Assembly (NCBI RefSeq): GCF_000012985.1
Contig: NC_007645.1
Span: 2,944,501-3,008,500, forward strand
DNA: 64,000 nucleotides
Reading direction: 5' to 3'
Source: Hahella chejuensis KCTC 2396
GTDB lineage: Bacteria; Pseudomonadota; Gammaproteobacteria; Pseudomonadales; Oleiphilaceae
In this document: piece by piece, positions 16,358 to 28,865 of the stretch
Layout: every line of letters begins with the position of its first letter
How positions within the stretch are numbered: the first letter of the stretch is position 1
Position numbers and translations under genes: made by a program
The notes under the pieces: generated by a model
Database searches by the model: none
Told to the model about the DNA's origin: nothing
What the model saw: only the letters and a program-made list of their open reading frames with translations

Positions 16358-16432
16358 AGCAGGGTAGATTAGTGGTAGATCGCCGGGCTCATAACCCGGA
16401 GGCCGCCGGTTCGAATCCGGCCCCTGCGTCCA
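16358..16432 (+). tRNA. tRNA-Met (CAT), initiator-like (fMet)
   Basis: 75-base cloverleaf ending in encoded CCA: acceptor 16358-16364/16422-16428, D arm 16367-16381, anticodon stem CCGGG/CCCGG with loop CTCATAA (anticodon CAT 16390-16392), T arm GCCGG-TTCGAAT-CCGGC. Initiator marks are present: unpaired 1:72 (A.G), A11:U24, and three G:C pairs (29-31/39-41) below the anticodon loop. Discriminator base is T. It lies in an operon between two small genes and so needs processing. Confidence 0.9.
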
Positions 16433-16810: not shown

Positions 16811-16835
16811 TCGGCTCTGAACGAATCCCTGCTTT

Positions 16836-16854
16836 GCCCCATCGGGGCCTTTTT
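16836..16854 (+). terminator. Rho-independent terminator
   Basis: GCCCC-ATC-GGGGC followed by CTTTTT, right after the coiled-coil gene. Confidence 0.7.
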
Positions 16855-16945
16855 AAAGCGTTTGACTGGCGATGGTTTATACCCCTTCGTCTACAAGTTG
16901 GAGTCAGTCAAGCGCTTTAGAAAGTCCCAGTTGACGGAGGCGTCA

Positions 16946-17095
16946 ATGATTTTAGGTGCGTTTTATTCATCCTTCCGCACCATCCGAGGTTGGGCGGTGC
17001 AAAAAGCGTATGGCCTGCTGGGGGATCAAGATCGGAAGGTCATGCTTGCGGCCGGCGCTGATCCGGCGACGCTGAAGCGCAGAGGGTATCTGTAA
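16946..17095 (+). CDS. Small phage protein, 49 aa
   Basis: ATG 16946 has GACGGAGGCGTCA before it (GGAGG, spacing about 5). Product MILGAFYSSFRTIRGWAVQK, AYGLLGDQDRKVMLAAGADP, ATLKRRGYL. The frame is open upstream to 16862 but that part runs into the terminator stem and lacks a ribosome site. Followed by a strong terminator. Not recognised. Confidence 0.55.
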   Translation: MILGAFYSSFRTIRGWAVQKAYGLLGDQDRKVMLAAGADPATLKRRGYL

Positions 17096-17102
17096 CAACG
17101 AA

Positions 17103-17140
17103 AAAACCCGCTGAGTCCGGCAAGACAGTCAGCGGGTTTT
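17103..17140. terminator. Strong bidirectional terminator
   Basis: AAAACCCGCTGA (17103-17114) pairs perfectly with TCAGCGGGTTTT (17129-17140) around a 14-base loop. Separates the small early genes from the replication gene, which would then need its own promoter or antitermination. Confidence 0.75.
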
Positions 17141-17218
17141 AATTTCTCACTTAAGAGGGCTTCATTGTGTGCGAAAAACGAACAGAACACAACCGCACGT
17201 TGCATAAAGGGGGTAGGG

Positions 17219-19690
17219 GTGCTCATTGACGAGGTGTTAGACCGGTTTCGGTCTGCCGGCCTGGTTGTTGACAGTCTGGACACGTCCGGCGACCTGGTGC
17301 GTTGTCCTGTCGACGGAGGCCGTCGAGGCAAAAAATCTGGCTGGTATATCTGCTTTAAAATCACGACTGACTCTGGCAAAGAGTCCTATCAAGGCCGCTT
17401 CGGCAATCAATCCATAGACGATAAAACCCTCTATTTCGACATCAGCGATCCCGCTATGTCCAAGGATGAGTTGCGCGAAGTACGCAAGTCCTTCCTGGAA
17501 AAGCAGCGGGCGGAAATGGATGCGAAAGAGGAAGCGAGCCGGGAAGAGGTTCGCCGTAGAGCTGCGCAGATATGGGAAGGGCTCCCACTTTCCGGCGCCT
17601 CTCCGTACCTCTCCAGTAAGGGCGTCGGCGGCTTTGGGGTAAGGTATACGCGCGGTTCGGTCGTTGTGCCTGTGCGACGTATCGCTGACGACGTATTAAC
17701 CGGCCTGCAGTTCATCAACGCTGAAGGCGGTAAGAAGTTTCTCACGGGCACGTCCAAGAAAGGGGCGGGGCATTTAATTGGAAAGGTTGATCCGGGCTGT
17801 CCGCTGATAGTTTGCGAGGGGTACGCGACAGGGGCCTCATTGCATATGGCGACCGAGTGGCCGGTGCTGGTGGCGTTTGATTGTGGCAATCTGCTGCCGG
17901 CGGCGCAGGCCATACGAGAGTTGCGCCCTGACGTGCAGTTGATCATTGCCGGGGACAATGACGCCAGTTCGGAGGATAACCCGGGCAAAACAGCGGCGAT
18001 CGCTGCTGCACAGGCGTTGGGAGCTATTGCAACCGTTCCTGACATTGAGAGCATGCCTGAATGCCTCCGTCCGGACTTTCCCAAGCTGGACTACAACGAT
18101 GTGCATTTGGCCAGAGGTCTTGATGTTATCTCTCATCAAATGACGGCCGTTCTTAATACCCCCGAATTTAACTTGGCCGCCGCTTCCCCCGCACCCCCTT
18201 TAGATGAAGAGTCGCGCGCGAATGGTGAAGTGGTCAGCATCGATCTGGAGCAAGTGCTGAATCGCTATGCGCTCATCGCCGGCGAGACTAAGTTTTGGGA
18301 CTGTCAGGAGCGCCGCGAGATCAAAAAGACGGCGTTTGTCGAGCTGATTGGGAAGTCGATTTACAACGAATGGAAAGAGCATGAGCGCCGGCGGGTGATT
18401 ACCCGCGCCGACGTCGCCGCCATTCAAAACGGGGGGGAGGGGGGCGACCTCCGTATACTCCAGCGCTACGTGTACATTTACCCAACCAAGGACGCCTGGG
18501 ACACGGAGCGCAAGGATCGGATACCGCTGGAAAACCTTCGCGCGGCCATGCCGAACGATTACGACTGGTGGCTGAAGCATCCGCAACGACGCCAGGTTGA
18601 TTCTGATCGCCTGGTGTTTGATCCGACGATGACGGCGGACCCCAAAACACACATCAACATTTTCGAAGGGTTGCCGCATAAGCCGTCGCCCAGATCGGAA
18701 TTTTGGCGCTGCGACTCTATCCGCGAGTTGATCAAGTGGCTGTGTAATGATGACGTGGACGTCGTCGACTGGGTCATGAAGTGGCTTGCCTATCCCATCC
18801 AAAATGTCGGCGCGAAGATGGACACGGCGCTGATGTTTCATTCTGATGTTCACGGCTCGGGCAAGTCGCTTCTGTTTGCCGATATCTGCCGGCAGCTCTA
18901 TGGTAAATATGCCGCGGTGCTGGGTCAGCATCAGTTAGAATCCCAGTACACCGATTGGCGGGACCGGTTGTTGTTCGCGGTATTCGAAGAGGTGTTAAGC
19001 CGAGACCAGAAATATGCGCACCTTGGCACCATCAAGCACATGATTACCGGTAAGACGCAGCGCATCGAGAAAAAGTTCGTGTCGGGCTGGGAGGAAGCCA
19101 ACCACATGAACTGCATATTTCTCAGTAACGAGTTTCAGCCGTTCCCCTTGGAGCCTAGCGATCGGCGTTTCCTGGTGGTGTGGCCTCGGGCGACGCTGCC
19201 GGAACACCTGCAGCAGCTTGTCAGTAATGAAATGGAAAACGGCGGTATTGAAGCCTTCTATGGCTACCTGCTGGCCTACAACACCAAGGGCTTTAATGAA
19301 CACACCAAGCCACTGATGACGGATGATAAGGCCAGGCTGATTCACTTCGGTTTATCCGGGACTGAGCTGTTCTACCAGGCTTGGCGTGATGGTCTGCTGG
19401 AAGCTCCGTATATGAGCTGTATCACGACAGATCTGTATGAGGTCTATAAGCGATGGTGCAGCAGAGAGGGCGAGCGATCGCTGACGCAGACAAAGTTCTC
19501 TCTACTGCTGTCGGTTAAGGAAAAGAAATCATTGGAAAGGTTTATGTCCGGAACGTCAATAAATGTGCGAAAGCAGCATTTCTTCATTATTGATACTCCA
19601 CAGAAGGGAGTTACCAAGCAGCAATGGTTGGGTGATTGTGTAGTGAAATTCAGGAATGAAGCTGATTTGAACAGAGAGGATGCATTTTAA
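17219..19690 (+). CDS. Phage replication protein: TOPRIM primase fused to DUF5906/SF3-type helicase
   Basis: 823 residues from GTG 17219, which has AAAGGGGG at good spacing; the frame is open to a TTG at 17165. A TOPRIM part (CPLIVCEGYATGASLH and LIIAGDNDAS, about residues 200-265) is followed by a helicase with Walker A HGSGKSLL (about 540), acidic VFEEVLSRDQ (Walker B) and CIFLSNEFQPFPL (sensor), the P4-alpha/DUF5906 layout. The last about 110 residues are a separate domain (FYQAWRDGLLEAPYMSCITT) found again in the gene at 21234. An iteron array, the likely origin, begins right after the stop. Confidence 0.88.
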   Translation: MLIDEVLDRFRSAGLVVDSLDTSGDLVRCPVDGGRRGKKSGWYICFKITTDSGKESYQGRFGNQSIDDKTLYFDISDPAMSKDELREVRKSFLEKQRAEMDAKEEASREEVRRRAAQIWEGLPLSGASPYLSSKGVGGFGVRYTRGSVVVPVRRIADDVLTGLQFINAEGGKKFLTGTSKKGAGHLIGKVDPGCPLIVCEGYATGASLHMATEWPVLVAFDCGNLLPAAQAIRELRPDVQLIIAGDNDASSEDNPGKTAAIAAAQALGAIATVPDIESMPECLRPDFPKLDYNDVHLARGLDVISHQMTAVLNTPEFNLAAASPAPPLDEESRANGEVVSIDLEQVLNRYALIAGETKFWDCQERREIKKTAFVELIGKSIYNEWKEHERRRVITRADVAAIQNGGEGGDLRILQRYVYIYPTKDAWDTERKDRIPLENLRAAMPNDYDWWLKHPQRRQVDSDRLVFDPTMTADPKTHINIFEGLPHKPSPRSEFWRCDSIRELIKWLCNDDVDVVDWVMKWLAYPIQNVGAKMDTALMFHSDVHGSGKSLLFADICRQLYGKYAAVLGQHQLESQYTDWRDRLLFAVFEEVLSRDQKYAHLGTIKHMITGKTQRIEKKFVSGWEEANHMNCIFLSNEFQPFPLEPSDRRFLVVWPRATLPEHLQQLVSNEMENGGIEAFYGYLLAYNTKGFNEHTKPLMTDDKARLIHFGLSGTELFYQAWRDGLLEAPYMSCITTDLYEVYKRWCSREGERSLTQTKFSLLLSVKEKKSLERFMSGTSINVRKQHFFIIDTPQKGVTKQQWLGDCVVKFRNEADLNREDAF

Positions 19691-20011
19691 CGCCACAGGT
19701 TAATAGGTAAACGCCACAGGTTGACCGTAAAACGCCACAAGTATGCCACAGGTTTAAAAATTGGAAATATTAGTTAAATCAATAATATATGACGCTGCGC
19801 CACAAGTGCCACAGGTTTACGCGCGCGGGCGTGTACGCGTGATTAAAATTACTCAGGGAAAATTTAAAAAATATTTTTCCTTCACGTGCGCGTGTAAAGC
19901 CTGTGGCACTTGTGGCGCAGTAATTAATTGCAATAAAAACATATACATAAGAATTTATAACCTGTGGCGTTTTAACCTCAACTTGTGGCGTTTACCTATT
20001 AACCTGTGGCA
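19691..20011. other. Probable phage replication origin: inverted array of 11 iterons
   Basis: Six GCCACARGT-type copies on the plus strand (starts 19692, 19713, 19734, 19745, 19799, 19808) and five on the minus strand (19900-19907, 19908-19916, 19959-19968, 19981-19989, 20001-20010). The outer copies are 21 bases apart. The halves mirror each other around an A+T-rich centre (about 19841-19880). A 21-bp arm at 19796-19816 has its perfect reverse complement at 19899-19919 or within one base of it. Placement after a P4-alpha-like primase-helicase fits an initiator-bound origin. Confidence 0.82.
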
Positions 20012-20070
20012 TTTAATAAAAAATATAAAACTTATACCAATAACGAATAAGAGTTACTGAAGAGGTAAAG

Positions 20071-20457
20071 ATGACTGATTCAATTCTGTTAGACGTTACA
20101 AGAGACTGGTTAGTGCGTTACGGACGTTGGGTGAGGGCTGGCGGCGTTCTTCCACGTTTTGAGAGGGTGGAAACCTGTTTGGACGACTACGATGGCTCAG
20201 AGCTTCTTACAGACGATCAGGCGCTAATTGTTGATAAAGCCCTGGCGCTTCTAAGCAGGGTGCAGCCGTTTGAAGGGAAGGCGATTAAGTGGGCCTATAT
20301 TGATCGGCGCGAGATCCGCGTCATAGCCAGGGACTTAGGGCGGAGCTATGGGGCGGCGAGGGAGCTGCTCCGGATGGGCGAATGCATCATGTCGGGCCTG
20401 CTGCAACCGCATTTGCCGACGCACCTGCTGGTTGACAGAGTTCGGAACGGTCGCTAG
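20071..20457 (+). CDS. Q-like late antiterminator
   Basis: 128 residues. WLVRYGRWVRAGGVLPRFER at the N-terminus and KWAYIDRREIRVIARDLGRS, YGAARELLRMGECIMSGLL at the C-terminus follow the phage antitermination Q family (W-R-Y-G-R-W start, C-terminal helix-turn-helix). Q loads on paused polymerase near the late promoter and lets it pass terminators. It lies between origin and lysis genes as in lambda; the target would be the promoter/terminator pair at 22037-22144. Confidence 0.8.
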   Translation: MTDSILLDVTRDWLVRYGRWVRAGGVLPRFERVETCLDDYDGSELLTDDQALIVDKALALLSRVQPFEGKAIKWAYIDRREIRVIARDLGRSYGAARELLRMGECIMSGLLQPHLPTHLLVDRVRNGR

Positions 20458-20500: not shown

Positions 20501-20528
20501 CCGCACCCGACAGTTATGCGGTTTTTTT
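20501..20528 (+). terminator. Terminator after Q-like gene
   Basis: CCGCA (20501-20505) pairs with TGCGG (20517-20521), followed by seven T residues (20522-20528). Confidence 0.6.
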
Positions 20529-20723
20529 GTGCCTGAAATACGGCTGTTGATTCTATCCAGCTATTTTTTCGGGCGCATGCCAGCCAAGTTTATGGCCGGG
20601 AGTTCTGCCGAATACAATACCCGCAAGGGGAATAGGCAAAGCGGTCTCGTAGAGCCGTTGTCACCCTCCCGGTCGCCTTCTCAAGGCGAATTTTGTGTGA
20701 CAACAAAATCTACGGAGGCCATC
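20529..20723 (+). promoter_or_regulatory. Leader region with hairpins before 20724 gene
   Basis: No gene with support. Contains GCCTT-CTC-AAGGC and an ATTTTGT...ACAAAAT inverted repeat (about 20690-20710) just before the ribosome site CTACGGAGG. Possible attenuation or protein-binding leader. Confidence 0.35.
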
Positions 20724-21233: not shown

Positions 21234-21929
21234 ATGACGAATTTGGTTGAAATCACTTCTACGGGGCTCCCGGTAACCACGACGCTGCTGATCGCGGAAG
21301 CGGCGCATTGCGCGCATGCGATCGTGCTCGGGTTGGTGCGAAGACACATTCAGTTTTTGCAGGAGTTGGGAACGGTGTGGTTTGGCGTGCCGCCGGGCAA
21401 AGAGGCGTCGGAGGAATTCGCGATGCTTAACGAGCGCCATGCCATGTATGTATTGAGCTGTATGCGTAATACCGCCGAGGTGGACCAAGTCCGGAAAGAC
21501 CTTTTGCGTCGATTTTATGAAATGGCCGGTGAAGGCCAGAAGGTTGCGGCGTCTGCACGCGTTCGAAGGGATAAAACCAAAACCCCAGCCGTACAGGTTC
21601 GGACTGGTGTGGAGCAGTTCTATCTTGAATGGCGTGAGGGCCTGCTTGAAGCGCCATACATGAGTTGTATCACCACCGACTTGTACGAGGTGTATGAGCG
21701 TTGGTGTAAGCGCGAGGGTGAACAAGCGGTGACGCAAACCATGTTTAGTTTGGTTATTTCTAGGAAAGAGGTGAAGTCTAAAGAGCGTTCGCTCGGTAGC
21801 GAAAAGGGCAGGGCGAGGCAGAATCAGTTTTTCGTTATTGGCGATCGCGCTCCAGGAATGAATAGGCAAGAATGGCTTGGTGAGTGCGTGGCGGCCTTCA
21901 GAGCGGCGGCGGGGCTGGTTGAAAAGTAA
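21234..21929 (+). CDS. Phage protein with duplicated primase-helicase C-terminal domain
   Basis: 231 residues. The N-terminal half (VTTTLLIAEAAHCAHAIVLG, RHAMYVLSCMRNTAEVDQVR) is unknown. The C-terminal about 110 residues (FYLEWREGLLEAPYMSCITT onward) match the end of the replication protein: EAPYMSCITTDLYEVY is identical in both and the homology runs to QEWLGECV versus QQWLGDCV. A free copy could compete at the origin or with the helicase (inference). Confidence 0.75.
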   Translation: MTNLVEITSTGLPVTTTLLIAEAAHCAHAIVLGLVRRHIQFLQELGTVWFGVPPGKEASEEFAMLNERHAMYVLSCMRNTAEVDQVRKDLLRRFYEMAGEGQKVAASARVRRDKTKTPAVQVRTGVEQFYLEWREGLLEAPYMSCITTDLYEVYERWCKREGEQAVTQTMFSLVISRKEVKSKERSLGSEKGRARQNQFFVIGDRAPGMNRQEWLGECVAAFRAAAGLVEK

Positions 21930-22121: not shown

Positions 22122-22144
22122 ACCCGGTTCAGCCGGGTTTTTTT
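22122..22144 (+). terminator. Early terminator of late transcript (tR'-like)
   Basis: ACCCGG-TTCAG-CCGGGT followed by a run of seven T residues ending just before the lysis genes. Likely overridden by the Q-like protein. Confidence 0.72.
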
Positions 22145-22159
22145 ATGCCCGGAGAAACC

Positions 22160-22579
22160 ATGAAGCGACAAGCAACGCGATTTGTGGTGGTGCATTGCTC
22201 GGCCACGCCGGCATCAATGGACGTTGACGCGGAGACTATCCGCACATGGCATAAGGATAAAGGGTGGTCGGATATTGGTTACCACTTGGTTATTAAGCGG
22301 GACGGGACTGTGCAAAACGGTCGCGACCTGATGTCTGTTGGCGCACATGTGCGCGGTCATAACGGTGACTCGGTTGGTGTGTGTCTTATTGGCGGAGTAG
22401 ATGACGAAGAAGTCCCGGAAGACAACTTCACAGAGGCGCAAAAGAACGCCTTGCGTACTGTTCTAGCTGGCTTGTTGGCGCGGTTCCCCGGCAGTGAGTT
22501 ACGTGGTCATCGTGACTTTCCAGGTGTCCATAAAGCATGTCCGAGTTTTGACGTCCGGGCATGGTACTTCAATCGGTGA
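22160..22579 (+). CDS. Endolysin: N-acetylmuramoyl-L-alanine amidase (T7 lysozyme type)
   Basis: 139 residues from ATG 22160 (GGAG 6-9 bases upstream; frame open to 22145). Amidase_2 fold: VVHCSATP near the N-terminus with zinc His12, YHLVIKRDGTVQNGRD, GAHVRGHNGDSVGVCLIGG, and C-terminal LRGHRDFPGVHKACPSFDV with the second zinc His and Cys. Cuts the amide bond between muramic acid and L-alanine for host lysis. First gene of the lysis cassette. Confidence 0.9.
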   Translation: MKRQATRFVVVHCSATPASMDVDAETIRTWHKDKGWSDIGYHLVIKRDGTVQNGRDLMSVGAHVRGHNGDSVGVCLIGGVDDEEVPEDNFTEAQKNALRTVLAGLLARFPGSELRGHRDFPGVHKACPSFDVRAWYFNR

Positions 22580-26431: not shown

Positions 26432-26956
26432 GTGAAGGTAAACAAGAAACAACTTGCTGACATTTTCGGCATCAGCGAGCGGACCTTCACCCAGTATCAA
26501 AAAGACCCCGACTTTCCGATTGTGTTGGATGCAGGGCGGGGGGCTTCGAATCAATACGACACGGTTGCCGTTTTCAATTTTCTGAAGGATCGGGCGTTAT
26601 CCGGAGCGAAATTCGAATCAGCCCGAGACAGATTGGATCGCATCAGGGCGGAGCGGGAAACCCTGGCTCTAGGTCGTGACCTCGGGGAACTGGTGCCCGC
26701 AAGTGAGCTGGAGGCGCTTCTTGAACAGGTCGTCACCGCTATCAAAACAACCTTGCTTGATAGCAATCACATTTTAAAAACCGAATTGGATGCTCGTTAC
26801 GATATAGATGTTGAACCAGACATACTCGACGAACATTCTAGACAGGCGCTCACTCACCTGGCGGCACTTGGTGATCAATACGCGGAGGGTGATAGCGAAC
26901 GCGCTGAAGAAGTTCCAGCCGCCGGAGAAGATGACGACGAAGGATTGGGCGAATAA
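26432..26956 (+). CDS. Terminase small subunit (Nu1-like)
   Basis: 174 residues from GTG. KKQLADIFGISERTFTQYQK is the winged helix-turn-helix of Nu1; the helical middle (RIRAERETLALGRDLGELVP) and acidic C-terminus follow family layout. Binds cos and recruits the large subunit. Overlaps the large subunit start by about 86 bases. Confidence 0.88.
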   Translation: MKVNKKQLADIFGISERTFTQYQKDPDFPIVLDAGRGASNQYDTVAVFNFLKDRALSGAKFESARDRLDRIRAERETLALGRDLGELVPASELEALLEQVVTAIKTTLLDSNHILKTELDARYDIDVEPDILDEHSRQALTHLAALGDQYAEGDSERAEEVPAAGEDDDEGLGE

Positions 26957-28865
26957 GTATCGTTGGCTTGCGAAAGAACAGTCAGCCCGCCCGGGGAAAT
27001 ATAACACCCGTCTAACGCCATGGATTGAAGGCATCATGGACGCGGTCGACGATCCTCGCGTGAAAAAGCTGGTTGTAAAGAAATCAGCTCAGGTCGCCTA
27101 CACTGATGGGTTCTGGAATAACTATCTTGGGCGACGAATCCACACCGATCCTTGTCCTATTGTGTTGCTTTTTCCGAAAGAAAAAACGATCAAAAAGTAC
27201 TTGGATCAAAAGTTCAACCCGATGATCACCGCTACTCCTGTGCTGCGGGATCTGGTGGACGTTACAACCAGTCGAAAGGCCGGCAACCGCCAAGATCAGA
27301 AGAACTTCCCCGGCGGGTTTTTGTCGTTGGTGGCATCGAACGCTCCGGATAACGTCAAGTCGACATCAGCCCCGGTGGTGGCGGTTGAAGAACCGGACGA
27401 CTGCAACACGAATGTATTCGGCCAGGGCGACTCAATTAAGCTGCTGGAAGAAAGGGCCAAGACTTACGATCGCCGGAAAGTGATATTCGGGGGGACGCCT
27501 ACGGTCAAGGGCGTTTCTCGCGTTGATGAAAGTTACAAAAACAGTGACCAGCGCAAGTTTTACATCCCTTGCCATGAGTGCGGCGAGTCTCATGTACTGT
27601 CTTGGGACAATGTCAGATGGGATGAGGACGAAAGCCGCAGCCATGAAGTCTTTGGGAAGATTATTCCCGAGTCAGCGTTTTATGTGTGTCCGCATTGCAC
27701 CTGCGTCTGGAATGATAACCAGAAGAACCGGAACGTTAAAAACGGCGTATGGGTTGCTGAGGCTGATTTTTCAGGGACAGCCGGATTCTATATCAACGAG
27801 CTGTATGCGCCTTTCCCAGGCTCCCGGTTTGCAATTCTTCTGACGAAGTACTTGGAGGCGAAGCACAAGAAAGAACAGGGAGACGACGGGGACATGATTG
27901 TCTTCGTCAACTCCACTTTGGGCTTGTCTTATGAGTACGAAACCGATTCGGCCAATGAGGACGAACTAGAAGCCAAGGCGCTGGAGTATCCGGAGAAAAG
28001 CATACCTACCGGCGGACTGATTCTGACGATGGGCGTTGACGTCCAACATGATCGTCTGGCTGTCATCATTCGGGCGTGGGGCCGAGGCGAAGAAAGTTTC
28101 CTCGTTTATTGGGGCGAGCTGGCTGCGCAAACGGCTTGTACCGATAAAAACGATGCAGTTTGGAAAGAACTGGATACGTTTTTATTCGGGGTCTATGAGC
28201 ATGCGTCCGGCGCTGGCCTGCGAATCTCTGCAACCGGCATTGATAGTTCAGACGGCGCCACGAATGACGCCGTTTACCACTATGTCCGGAGTCGGAAAAA
28301 GCTCGGAGCGAAGATTATGGCGATCAAGGGCGACTCGGAGAACACTAAGCAAGCCAGTGATCGCGAGATTGTCACGCCTCCCCGCAAAGTGGACGTGAAC
28401 AGCCAGACAAAGGCCTCTAAATATGGCCTGCAGGTCTATATCGTCGGTACGCAAAAGGCGAAAGACCTGATATCTGCGCGCCTGAAATTGAGCGGGATTG
28501 GTCCTGGTCGAATGCACAACTATAAAGACGTGCGCTCAGACTATTACGCGCAGGTACTAAGCGAGATTAAGGCGCCCAGTCGGCGCCAACTTGGTAAAAA
28601 GGTTTGGCAAAAGAAAGCGGGTGTCCGCAACGAAGCGTTGGACTGCGAAGTTTACGCGCTTCACGCAGCCAGAGTGCTGCGAATACAGCTCAAAAAGCCA
28701 GCCGATTGGGACAATATTGAGGCGAATTTGAAGCAGGTAGACCTGCTATCACCAATAACCATACCGACCCAACCGGATGAAAAGCCGTCTGCTGGCGTGT
28801 CAGTCAAGCAAGCAGGCGAGAGTAAGTCTGGAGGGTGGGGATCATTAGGACAGAGGGCTACCTGA
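26871..28865 (+). CDS. Terminase large subunit (lambda GpA family)
   Basis: About 664 residues from the GTG at 26871; the frame is open to 26808 and the start is uncertain. ATPase: VVKKSAQVAYTDG (Walker A variant like lambda) and VVAVEEPDDC (Walker B). Nuclease acidic residues in LTMGVDVQHDRL and TGIDSSDGATND. Cuts concatemers and drives DNA into the capsid. Two cysteine pairs (IPCHECG, VCPHCTC) form a zinc knuckle as in other GpA proteins. Confidence 0.9.
   Translation: MINTRRVIANALKKFQPPEKMTTKDWANKYRWLAKEQSARPGKYNTRLTPWIEGIMDAVDDPRVKKLVVKKSAQVAYTDGFWNNYLGRRIHTDPCPIVLLFPKEKTIKKYLDQKFNPMITATPVLRDLVDVTTSRKAGNRQDQKNFPGGFLSLVASNAPDNVKSTSAPVVAVEEPDDCNTNVFGQGDSIKLLEERAKTYDRRKVIFGGTPTVKGVSRVDESYKNSDQRKFYIPCHECGESHVLSWDNVRWDEDESRSHEVFGKIIPESAFYVCPHCTCVWNDNQKNRNVKNGVWVAEADFSGTAGFYINELYAPFPGSRFAILLTKYLEAKHKKEQGDDGDMIVFVNSTLGLSYEYETDSANEDELEAKALEYPEKSIPTGGLILTMGVDVQHDRLAVIIRAWGRGEESFLVYWGELAAQTACTDKNDAVWKELDTFLFGVYEHASGAGLRISATGIDSSDGATNDAVYHYVRSRKKLGAKIMAIKGDSENTKQASDREIVTPPRKVDVNSQTKASKYGLQVYIVGTQKAKDLISARLKLSGIGPGRMHNYKDVRSDYYAQVLSEIKAPSRRQLGKKVWQKKAGVRNEALDCEVYALHAARVLRIQLKKPADWDNIEANLKQVDLLSPITIPTQPDEKPSAGVSVKQAGESKSGGWGSLGQRAT

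What the first reader, a model, noticed from the sequence alone, without database searches (positions are those of the whole stretch)
19691..20011. Prophage origin built as an inverted duplication of 21-bp-phased iterons
Eleven GCCACARGT copies, six on one strand and five on the other, form two mirrored arms around an A+T-rich core, with the outer copies exactly 21 bp apart (two helical turns). The array begins directly after the gene for a TOPRIM/DUF5906 primase-helicase. P4-alpha-type proteins are known to bind iterons; the mirrored geometry would place initiators on both sides of the melting zone and suggests symmetric bidirectional start. I do not know a described origin of this shape.
Basis: partly seen in the sequence, partly recalled or inferred. 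Interest (0 to 1): 0.8.

Follow-up and report, generated by a model that had tools for sequence, protein, structure and literature searches.

The report
Phage replication origin with mirrored repeats
Just behind a phage replication gene lies a mirrored set of short protein-binding repeats that very probably is the phage's replication start site, and related phages keep a similar layout while spelling the repeats differently.

Summary
In detail: six plus-strand and five minus-strand copies of GCCACARGY (ten fit GCCACARGT, one reads GCCACAGGC) lie in 19692-20010, one base behind a TOPRIM/D5-type primase-helicase gene; the outer three of each arm are 21 bp apart. Best reading: the phage's replication origin, bound by the initiator's C-terminal winged helix.

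The shape is not undescribed: two iteron sets around an A+T-rich zone, directly 3' of rep, is the published plan of SaPI/PICI satellite origins, and the helicase model matches the solved SaPI5 primase-helicase. What appears new is this plan in full-size phages. In 121 of 138 loci (window included) the 400 bp behind the primase hold at least 6 two-strand copies of one 7-mer; none of 16,563 control windows does.

Sixty-one regions hold 21 iteron classes under a shared spacing pattern: inner copies 8-9 bp apart, outer copies mostly 9-11 or 21. Many have an alternating CG tract. Two Hahella prophages, 94.7% identical over most of the primase gene, differ in the initiator's wing, C-helix and iterons; across the whole set that link is weak. 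No function was tested.

The parts
17219..19690 (+). Initiator gene: TOPRIM primase (aa 196-300), D5/SF3-type helicase with DUF5906 (aa 541-650), C-terminal winged helix (about aa 713-815). An upstream TTG at 17165 would lengthen it by 18 aa.
   Evidence: Pfam/PHROG hits; ORF list; AF2 models; Foldseek to NrS-1, poxvirus D5/E5 and SaPI5 helicases
19523..19588 (+). Codons of the beta-hairpin wing (aa 769-790), which changes together with the iteron between the two Hahella prophages (the C-helix behind it diverges too)
   Evidence: AF2 strands 769-776 and 783-790; identity by sub-region
19692..19753 (+). Outer-left iterons, 4 copies (19692, 19713, 19734, 19745), spacing 21, 21, 11
19754..19798 (.). 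Left A+T-rich linker (78% A+T); A+T richness of this linker is not conserved in relatives (30 of 56 above their locus)
19799..19816 (+). Inner-left iterons, 2 copies 9 bp apart
19817..19841 (.). G+C-rich, mostly alternating purine-pyrimidine block next to the inner-left iterons (one GGG break)
   Evidence: runs of 14 nt or more with 3 or more CpG in 40 of 62 array regions against 8 of 2635 control windows
19842..19884 (.). Central A+T-rich segment (81% A+T), candidate melting zone
   Evidence: core middle more A+T-rich than its locus in 60 of 61 regions
19883..19896 (.). Right alternating block (14 nt)
19899..19916 (-). Inner-right iterons, 2 copies 9 bp apart; the copy at 19899-19907 reads GCCACAGGC
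19917..19959 (.). Right A+T-rich linker (81% A+T), A+T-rich in relatives too (59 of 60 above their locus)
19960..20010 (-). Outer-right iterons, 3 copies 21 bp apart
20071..20457 (+). Antitermination protein Q-like gene that follows the array
   Evidence: PF06530 / phrog_79
21234..21929 (+). Rha-type regulator domain (Pfam score just under its cut-off) fused to a second copy of the initiator's winged helix (57% identity over 105 aa); possible regulator of this origin or of another one
   Evidence: two matches of the domain in this genome

Best explanation
19692-20010 is the replication origin of this temperate phage. The C-terminal winged helix of the upstream primase-helicase binds the iterons. 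The two oppositely facing inner clusters place two helicase rings head to head on either side of the A+T-rich core, which melts, and the TOPRIM part then primes. The outer clusters load or hold further initiator. Shown by sequence: the array, its conservation behind the primase, the spacing pattern and the A+T-rich core. Supported by comparison: recognition by the winged helix, with the wing as the best candidate for the letter-reading part. Inferred from SaPI and SV40 work: two rings, melting in the core, bidirectional forks.
For: Among 138 loci (window included), 121 have 6 or more two-strand copies of one 7-mer in the 400 bp behind the primase, and in 127 that stretch alone ranks first in its locus; of 16,563 overlapping control windows none reaches 6. 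Two-strand arrays behind the primase in 6 of 6 isolated phages examined (of 412 records with a match): PG1, S1, Mcat9, Mcat4, H4907, Lodos (no control run). The helicase model matches NrS-1 (E 2.6e-16), poxvirus D5/E5 and SaPI5 primase-helicase 7ola (E 1.6e-7); the C-terminal domain is modelled as a winged helix with pLDDT 86. Window against Hahella HN01: 94.7% DNA identity over 16827-19530, then 42-68% per 60-bp bin through the end of the gene and the array, then 80% in the Q gene. Winged-helix helices 54 of 54 identical, wing 15 of 26. In 436 pairs with near-equal helicase cores, the C-terminal half of the winged helix differs by a median 0.54 where iterons differ (17 pairs) and 0.29 where they agree (419 pairs). 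Published analogy: PICI origin directly 3' of rep with two iteron sets around an A+T-rich region; a pri-ori plasmid differed in maintenance from versions lacking ori or pri (PMC6092414 passages).
Against: No binding or replication data exist. Across all regions, iteron distance follows helicase-core distance more than wing-half distance (partial correlations 0.33 against 0.16), and counting iteron changes on trees does not separate the two (21 changes on the core tree, 20 on the winged-helix tree). In the 17 differing pairs the helical half differs too (median 0.36 against 0.24), and they come from about five independent switches (my count). 11 of 138 loci are not uniquely top-ranked. In Mcat9 the pair around the largest gap is on one strand. 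Both Moraxella phages lack the CG tract by eye. Foldseek on the isolated domain gives no match at E 0.001 or better. Loci were collected by primase similarity, so they are not independent.
Confidence: 0.82

Rival explanations
1. The array is an operator for transcription control (for example of the Q gene behind it), bound by the initiator or by the Rha-winged-helix protein, not an origin.
For: It lies upstream of Q; Rha is a regulator family, and its fused winged helix is a copy of the initiator's domain.
Against: No sigma-70-like promoter toward Q was found: 3 promoter-like hits, all on the minus strand, against 1.3 expected. A winged-helix copy outside the primase is absent from the 14-kb HN01 locus, and a close-relative scan of viral contigs found the Rha fusion only in this prophage. 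In phage S1 the annotated genes behind the primase are gp2, which covers the array, and terminase small subunit. In L156 the array sits upstream of the primase.
Confidence: 0.08
2. The inverted duplication works as a hairpin: an RNA structure/terminator or a cruciform.
For: The 331-nt strand folds far better than 100 shuffles (z -17.3); outer-arm spacers are also complementary here (masked spacers score 22 against a maximum of 20 in 30 shuffles).
Against: Outer clusters are not mirrored in 31 of 62 regions. Of 6 mirrored regions tested with iterons masked, only the window exceeds all its shuffles; L082 (22 against 23) and L087 (19 against 19) reach the upper end, L062, L065 and L073 lie near or below the mean. 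The only terminator-like hit is on the minus strand, 1 against 0.6 expected; no Rfam match in the array.
Confidence: 0.05
3. The array is a partition or incompatibility site (centromere-like), or a packaging/recombination site.
For: Phased, mirrored repeats occur at such sites too (general knowledge).
Against: It adjoins the primase; the terminase large subunit gene lies about 7 kb away here. In close pairs the iteron changes together with the initiator's own domain.
Confidence: 0.04

Closest known systems
SaPI / PICI satellite origins (PMC6092414 passages; the original SaPI papers were not held and are known to me only through citing passages)
   Same: Origin directly 3' of the replication gene; two iteron sets around an A+T-rich region; D5-type primase-helicase initiator; iterons differing between elements; recognition by the C-terminal domain
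   Different: Found here in full-size phages with their own terminase and other phage genes; TOPRIM primase, whereas the SaPI primases are said to be AEP (PMC7581432 passage); two-tier inner/outer spacing and an alternating CG tract, neither of which I saw described. [quoted passage not shown]
P4 alpha protein with ori and crr (largely recalled; a passage of PMC7145576 mentions the fused P4 primase and helicase)
   Same: Single protein with TOPRIM-type primase, SF3 helicase and C-terminal origin-binding domain; iterons (recalled)
   Different: P4 uses two separated sites (recalled); here one compact array, no second cluster of this iteron in 64 kb
SV40 T-antigen origin
   Same: Opposed recognition repeats that load two head-to-head hexamers (PMC9894130 passage)
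   Different: N-terminal DNA-binding domain (PMC7581432 passage); animal virus
NrS-1 phage primase-helicase (6k9c, 6k9e, 6lrb)
   Same: Closest solved helicase by sequence (E 4e-8 single, 1.9e-20 profile) and by fold
   Different: PrimPol-type primase (PMC7581432 passage); its origin was not examined here
Iteron plasmids and lambda-type origins (recalled)
   Same: Short repeats bound by a plasmid or phage initiator next to an A+T-rich zone
   Different: Repeats typically lie on one side in one direction, and the initiator is not a helicase

Membership tests
SaPI/PICI-type replication origin | Lies immediately 3' of the replication initiator gene | tested here: met
   Stop codon ends at 19690, first iteron at 19692; in 127 of 138 loci the stretch behind the gene alone ranks first; exception L156, upstream
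[quoted passage not shown]
   Window; opposite-strand pair around a 77-125 bp gap in 61 of 62 regions; core middle more A+T-rich than the locus in 60 of 61; Mcat9 deviates
SaPI/PICI-type replication origin | Initiator is a self-loading hexameric D5/SF3 helicase like SaPI Rep | tested here: met
   Fold level only: Foldseek of the AF2 model to 7ola SaPI5 primase-helicase E 1.6e-7 and 7pds PriRep1 E 4.4e-7; the sequence profile hits NrS-1 but not SaPI Rep; hexamer and self-loading not testable
SaPI/PICI-type replication origin | C-terminal domain of the initiator sets iteron specificity | tested here: inconclusive
   Strong in close pairs, weak across the whole set
SaPI/PICI-type replication origin | Gene plus origin replicate autonomously | not testable with these tools
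   Needs a plasmid maintenance assay
PICI (the element itself) | Satellite that lacks the large terminase subunit and virion genes of a phage (recalled) | tested here: not met
   GpA terminase large subunit 26808-28865 and an endolysin-type amidase 22145-22579; the six phage records examined are annotated with a terminase
P4 alpha/ori system | Primase, helicase and origin-binding domain in one protein (recalled) | tested here: met
   Toprim_3 and DUF5906, winged helix; DNA binding itself not tested
P4 alpha/ori system | Second separate iteron site, crr (recalled) | tested here: not met
   No second cluster of the iteron in 64 kb; array matches nowhere else in the genome

The most novel reading that the evidence does not exclude
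The spacing itself may be a ring-loading code. Inner copies are 8 or 9 bp apart (147 of 149 spacings, mean 8.84 bp, about five sixths of a helical turn), so successive sites would turn by about 60 degrees, the angle between neighbouring subunits of a hexamer. Most outer copies (122 of 200 spacings) are 10, 11 or 21 bp apart, on one face. Letters drift freely and are read by a replaceable wing, while spacing and an alternating CG (possibly Z-forming) tract stay: one hexamer-assembly grammar with many specificities, shared by phages and satellites.
Probability: 0.3. Interest if true: 0.8.

Novelty: new variant of a known kind. Interest (0 to 1): 0.62.

Why it matters
It would place origins on phages and prophages of Pseudomonas, Stutzerimonas, Marinobacter, Hahella, Halomonas, Stenotrophomonas and Moraxella whose replication gene is, in the phage records listed, annotated mostly as primase, helicase or hypothetical protein. 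It would also counter the published statement that the PICI origin plan occurs in no other known bacterial replicon. The 21 iteron classes, together with natural sister pairs whose initiators differ mainly in wing and C-helix, make the question of how a self-loading helicase reads its origin directly testable.

Tried and rejected
A first mirrored-array scan with exact 8-mers and a first dual-strand scan missed most Pseudomonas arrays: their iteron (TGTGTTGGGT) has only G and T, which my low-complexity filters removed, and mixed orientation was penalised. The filter was changed after I had seen those arrays by eye, so one search is not blind; the same rule was applied to all control windows. 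Searching relatives for the window's own iteron found no other cluster (at most 3 hits per 500 bp outside L001-L003, which are the window itself). A Rha-winged-helix relative was sought and not found in viral contigs (close relatives only); in the phage collection 90 records match and none covers 80% of the protein. A second repeat array near the Rha gene was sought and not found. A hairpin reading was considered and set aside. GC skew was not used, since divergent gene orientation would confound it. The Mantel test and tree counts did not give the clean signal that close pairs give, and are reported as such. Foldseek of the isolated winged helix was indecisive. Paper searches for a description of such phage origins found none in their listings: (open-licence PMC only; listings of at most 20, and only the papers named in this report, besides PMC2647930, were opened).

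Full report
What is there. The window lies in a 7,215,267-bp single-contig genome (G000:C1:2944501-3008500). A viral-contig record of the same prophage (L003) matches the primase at 100%. The size and the nearest named relative, Hahella sp. HN01 (L082, 93% primase identity), suggest Hahella chejuensis; that name is my inference. Six plus-strand and five minus-strand copies of GCCACARGY fill 19692-20010, ten of them exact GCCACARGT. The primase-helicase gene ends at 19690. Spacings are 21, 21, 11, 54, 9, 92, 9, 52, 21, 21. The order is: outer iterons, A+T-rich linker, inner pair, alternating CG block, A+T-rich core, alternating block, inner pair, A+T-rich linker, outer iterons. Chance is excluded: best 7-mer count 7 against at most 4 in 500 shuffles.

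The protein. Pfam finds Toprim_3 and DUF5906, with a sub-threshold Pox_D5 at the C-terminus; the best PHROG is phrog_2249, DNA primase. AF2 of aa 680-823 gives a winged helix (pLDDT 86.2); in protein numbering helix 757-765, wing strands 769-776 and 783-790, C-helix 800-814. Foldseek on this domain gives only weak matches, Cdc6/Orc1 (E 0.047) and RFX (E 0.078, probability 0.96), none at E 0.001 or better. RFX reads DNA partly with its wing (recalled). The full-length model (pLDDT 77.5, pTM 0.48) matches NrS-1 helicase (E 2.6e-16), poxvirus D5/E5 hexamers and SaPI5 primase-helicase 7ola (E 1.6e-7). By sequence the only confident PDB match is NrS-1.

Relatives. Scans with the primase gave 79 viral loci (368 matched, the best 80 kept) and 63 genome loci. 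L001-L003, copies of the window, were left out; of the remaining 141 loci plus the window, 141 have the C-terminal domain, and 3 of these (L004, L028, L060) were dropped for less than 300 bp behind the gene, which leaves 138. For L040 and L059 the count starts behind the extra winged-helix gene. I counted the best 7-mer on both strands (at least two per strand) in the next 400 bp: 6 or more in 121 of 138, 5 or more in 125, 4 or more in 129, uniquely top-ranked in 127. Of 16,563 overlapping windows elsewhere in the same sequences, 114 score 4, 11 score 5, none 6. Not top-ranked: L015, L020, L059, L075, L086, L105, L110, L112, L117, L121, L130. Of these, L059, L075, L086 and L110 show arrays by eye; L015, L059, L075, L086 and L105 were given 5 to 12 sites by the looser scan, and L112 scores 5. 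The 138 collapse to 62 representative regions by shared 10-mers (joined at more than 30% shared). With one mismatch allowed, 61 of these 62 have an opposite-strand neighbour pair 77-125 bp apart. The search asked for such a pair at 55-150 bp, so this is partly by construction; in L041 and L058 the pair chosen is probably not the true core. Using 61 regions (L075 dropped), iterons fall into 21 classes at distance 0.2; one class, TGTGTTGGGT-like, holds 32.

Grammar. Inner same-strand spacings: 9 bp 124 times, 8 bp 23, 14 bp 2 (n = 149). By construction spacings under 8 cannot appear and those over 14 count as outer; the pile-up at 9 with nothing at 10-13 is not by construction. Outer (n = 200): 11 bp 80, 9 bp 35, 21 bp 24, 10 bp 18, 12 bp 11, 20 bp 11, the rest fewer. 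About half the regions belong to one iteron class, so these are not independent counts. 21 bp is one of the outer distances, not a rule of the whole array. By majority orientation, outer clusters are mirrored in 19 of 62 regions and same-direction in 31, mixed or lacking in 12. Core middle A+T is 0.615 against 0.437 for the locus (60 of 61 above), right linker 0.671 (59 of 60), left linker 0.466 (30 of 56). Alternating purine-pyrimidine runs with at least 3 CpG and 14 nt or longer occur in 40 of 62 regions against 8 of 2635 control windows. A right-hand motif like YAYGCGAG was matched in 48 of 62 with a loose pattern made after seeing the sequences, without control.

Isolated phages and new genomes. 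All six phage records examined (of 412 with a tblastn match) have two-strand repeat arrays behind the primase, 8 to 13 sites: PG1, S1, Mcat9, Mcat4, H4907, Lodos. Five have an opposite-strand pair around the largest gap; Mcat9 (8 sites) does not. By eye the CG tract is clear in PG1, Lodos and H4907, weaker in S1 and absent in both Moraxella phages. phrog_2249 matches in 45 of 274 genomes of the class; 44 of the 57 places cover only the primase half. Of the four full-length matches besides the window: L155 has 12 copies of GTTCCTA although its helicase half hardly matches my profile (16.8 bits), L157 has 9 copies of ATGTGAC, L158 has 4 (its own control also reaches 4), and L156 has none behind the gene but 9 copies in front of it. 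The other 25 loci, short and mostly primase-half matches, show a score of 6 or more in 2 (L164, L182), not placed behind the gene.

Specificity. Window and HN01 are 94.7% identical at DNA level over 16827-19530, 42-68% per 60-bp bin from 19501 to about 20100, and 80% over 20062-20414 in the Q gene. Their winged helices share 54 of 54 residues in aa 713-766, 15 of 26 in aa 767-792 (wing) and 13 of 25 in aa 793-817. HN01 has TGTGCAGGGT, as do L005, L029, L041 and L084 (only L084 is from a named Marinobacter genome, I call the rest Marinobacter-type). In the order L084, L029, L041, L005, HN01's wing shares 8, 6, 8, 7 of 24 residues with these and the window's 4, 3, 4, 3; the helices score the same for both (26, 25, 23, 22 of 54); the C-terminal stretch favours the window slightly (10, 8, 10, 10 against 8, 7, 9, 7 of 25). 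Residues 772 (Leu here, Arg in HN01) and 787 (His here, Met in HN01) are likely cross-strand neighbours, inferred from the hairpin register. Among 436 pairs with helicase-core distance under 0.25, aa 758-812 differ by a median 0.541 when iterons differ (17 pairs) and 0.287 when they agree (419); aa 713-757 by 0.356 and 0.239; cores by 0.196 and 0.178. The pairs are not independent; I count about five switches. Across all 61 regions the wing half adds only a little beyond the core (partial 0.16, reached by 31 of 2000 permutations; without the large class, n = 32, 0.17, 10 of 2000), while core beyond wing half gives 0.33 and 0.27. Trees need 21 and 20 changes, so they do not decide.

Known or not. 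[quoted passage not shown] Passages of PMC9894130 liken SaPI origins to SV40's, with repeats in opposite orientation loading two head-to-head hexamers. Passages of PMC7581432 say that SaPI Rep recognises the origin by its C-terminal domain and that the SaPI primases are AEP. The original SaPI papers asked for are not held. My searches listed no paper on this origin type in temperate phages. I therefore call it a new variant of a known kind: the PICI plan in full-size phages, with a spacing pattern and a CG tract that I did not see described.

The Rha fusion. ORF 21234-21929 joins a Rha-like N-terminus to a copy of the winged helix, 39 of 54 identical to the window's in the helices but 10 of 26 in the wing. 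It may compete for this array or read another; nothing decides. The 14-kb HN01 locus has no such copy.

Noticed in passing
21234-21929: Rha regulator domain fused to a second copy of the initiator's winged helix; the wing differs strongly, so it may read a different iteron. A close-relative scan of viral contigs found it only in this prophage.
   Followed up: partly
L040 8503-8964 and L059 8512-8964: A separate small winged-helix gene sits between the primase and the array in two viral contigs, besides the primase's own domain.
   Followed up: partly
20594-20682: Rfam sRNA-Xcc1 (RF02221, 66.3 bits), a family known from Xanthomonas integron cassettes (PMC12444791 passages), here inside a prophage.
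   Followed up: partly
20520-20533 and 22136-22149: Imperfect 14-nt direct repeat (93%) around the stretch with the Rha fusion; possibly a trace of insertion, possibly chance.
   Followed up: no
16358-16432: tRNA-Met (CAT) gene inside the prophage, upstream of the primase.
   Followed up: no
L082 9384-13601: In Hahella HN01 the place behind Q holds an NB-ARC/TPR protein and an Mrr-type restriction endonuclease, defence-like cargo.
   Followed up: no
L155 (behind the ORF), L156 851-1350, L164 1801-2200, L182 151-550: Two-strand arrays beside or near TOPRIM proteins outside the main set: L155 has a helicase half unlike mine, L156 has its array in front of the gene, in L164 the repeats lie inside the ORF and in L182 roughly 0.9 kb from it. 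The plan may reach beyond this helicase family.
   Followed up: partly
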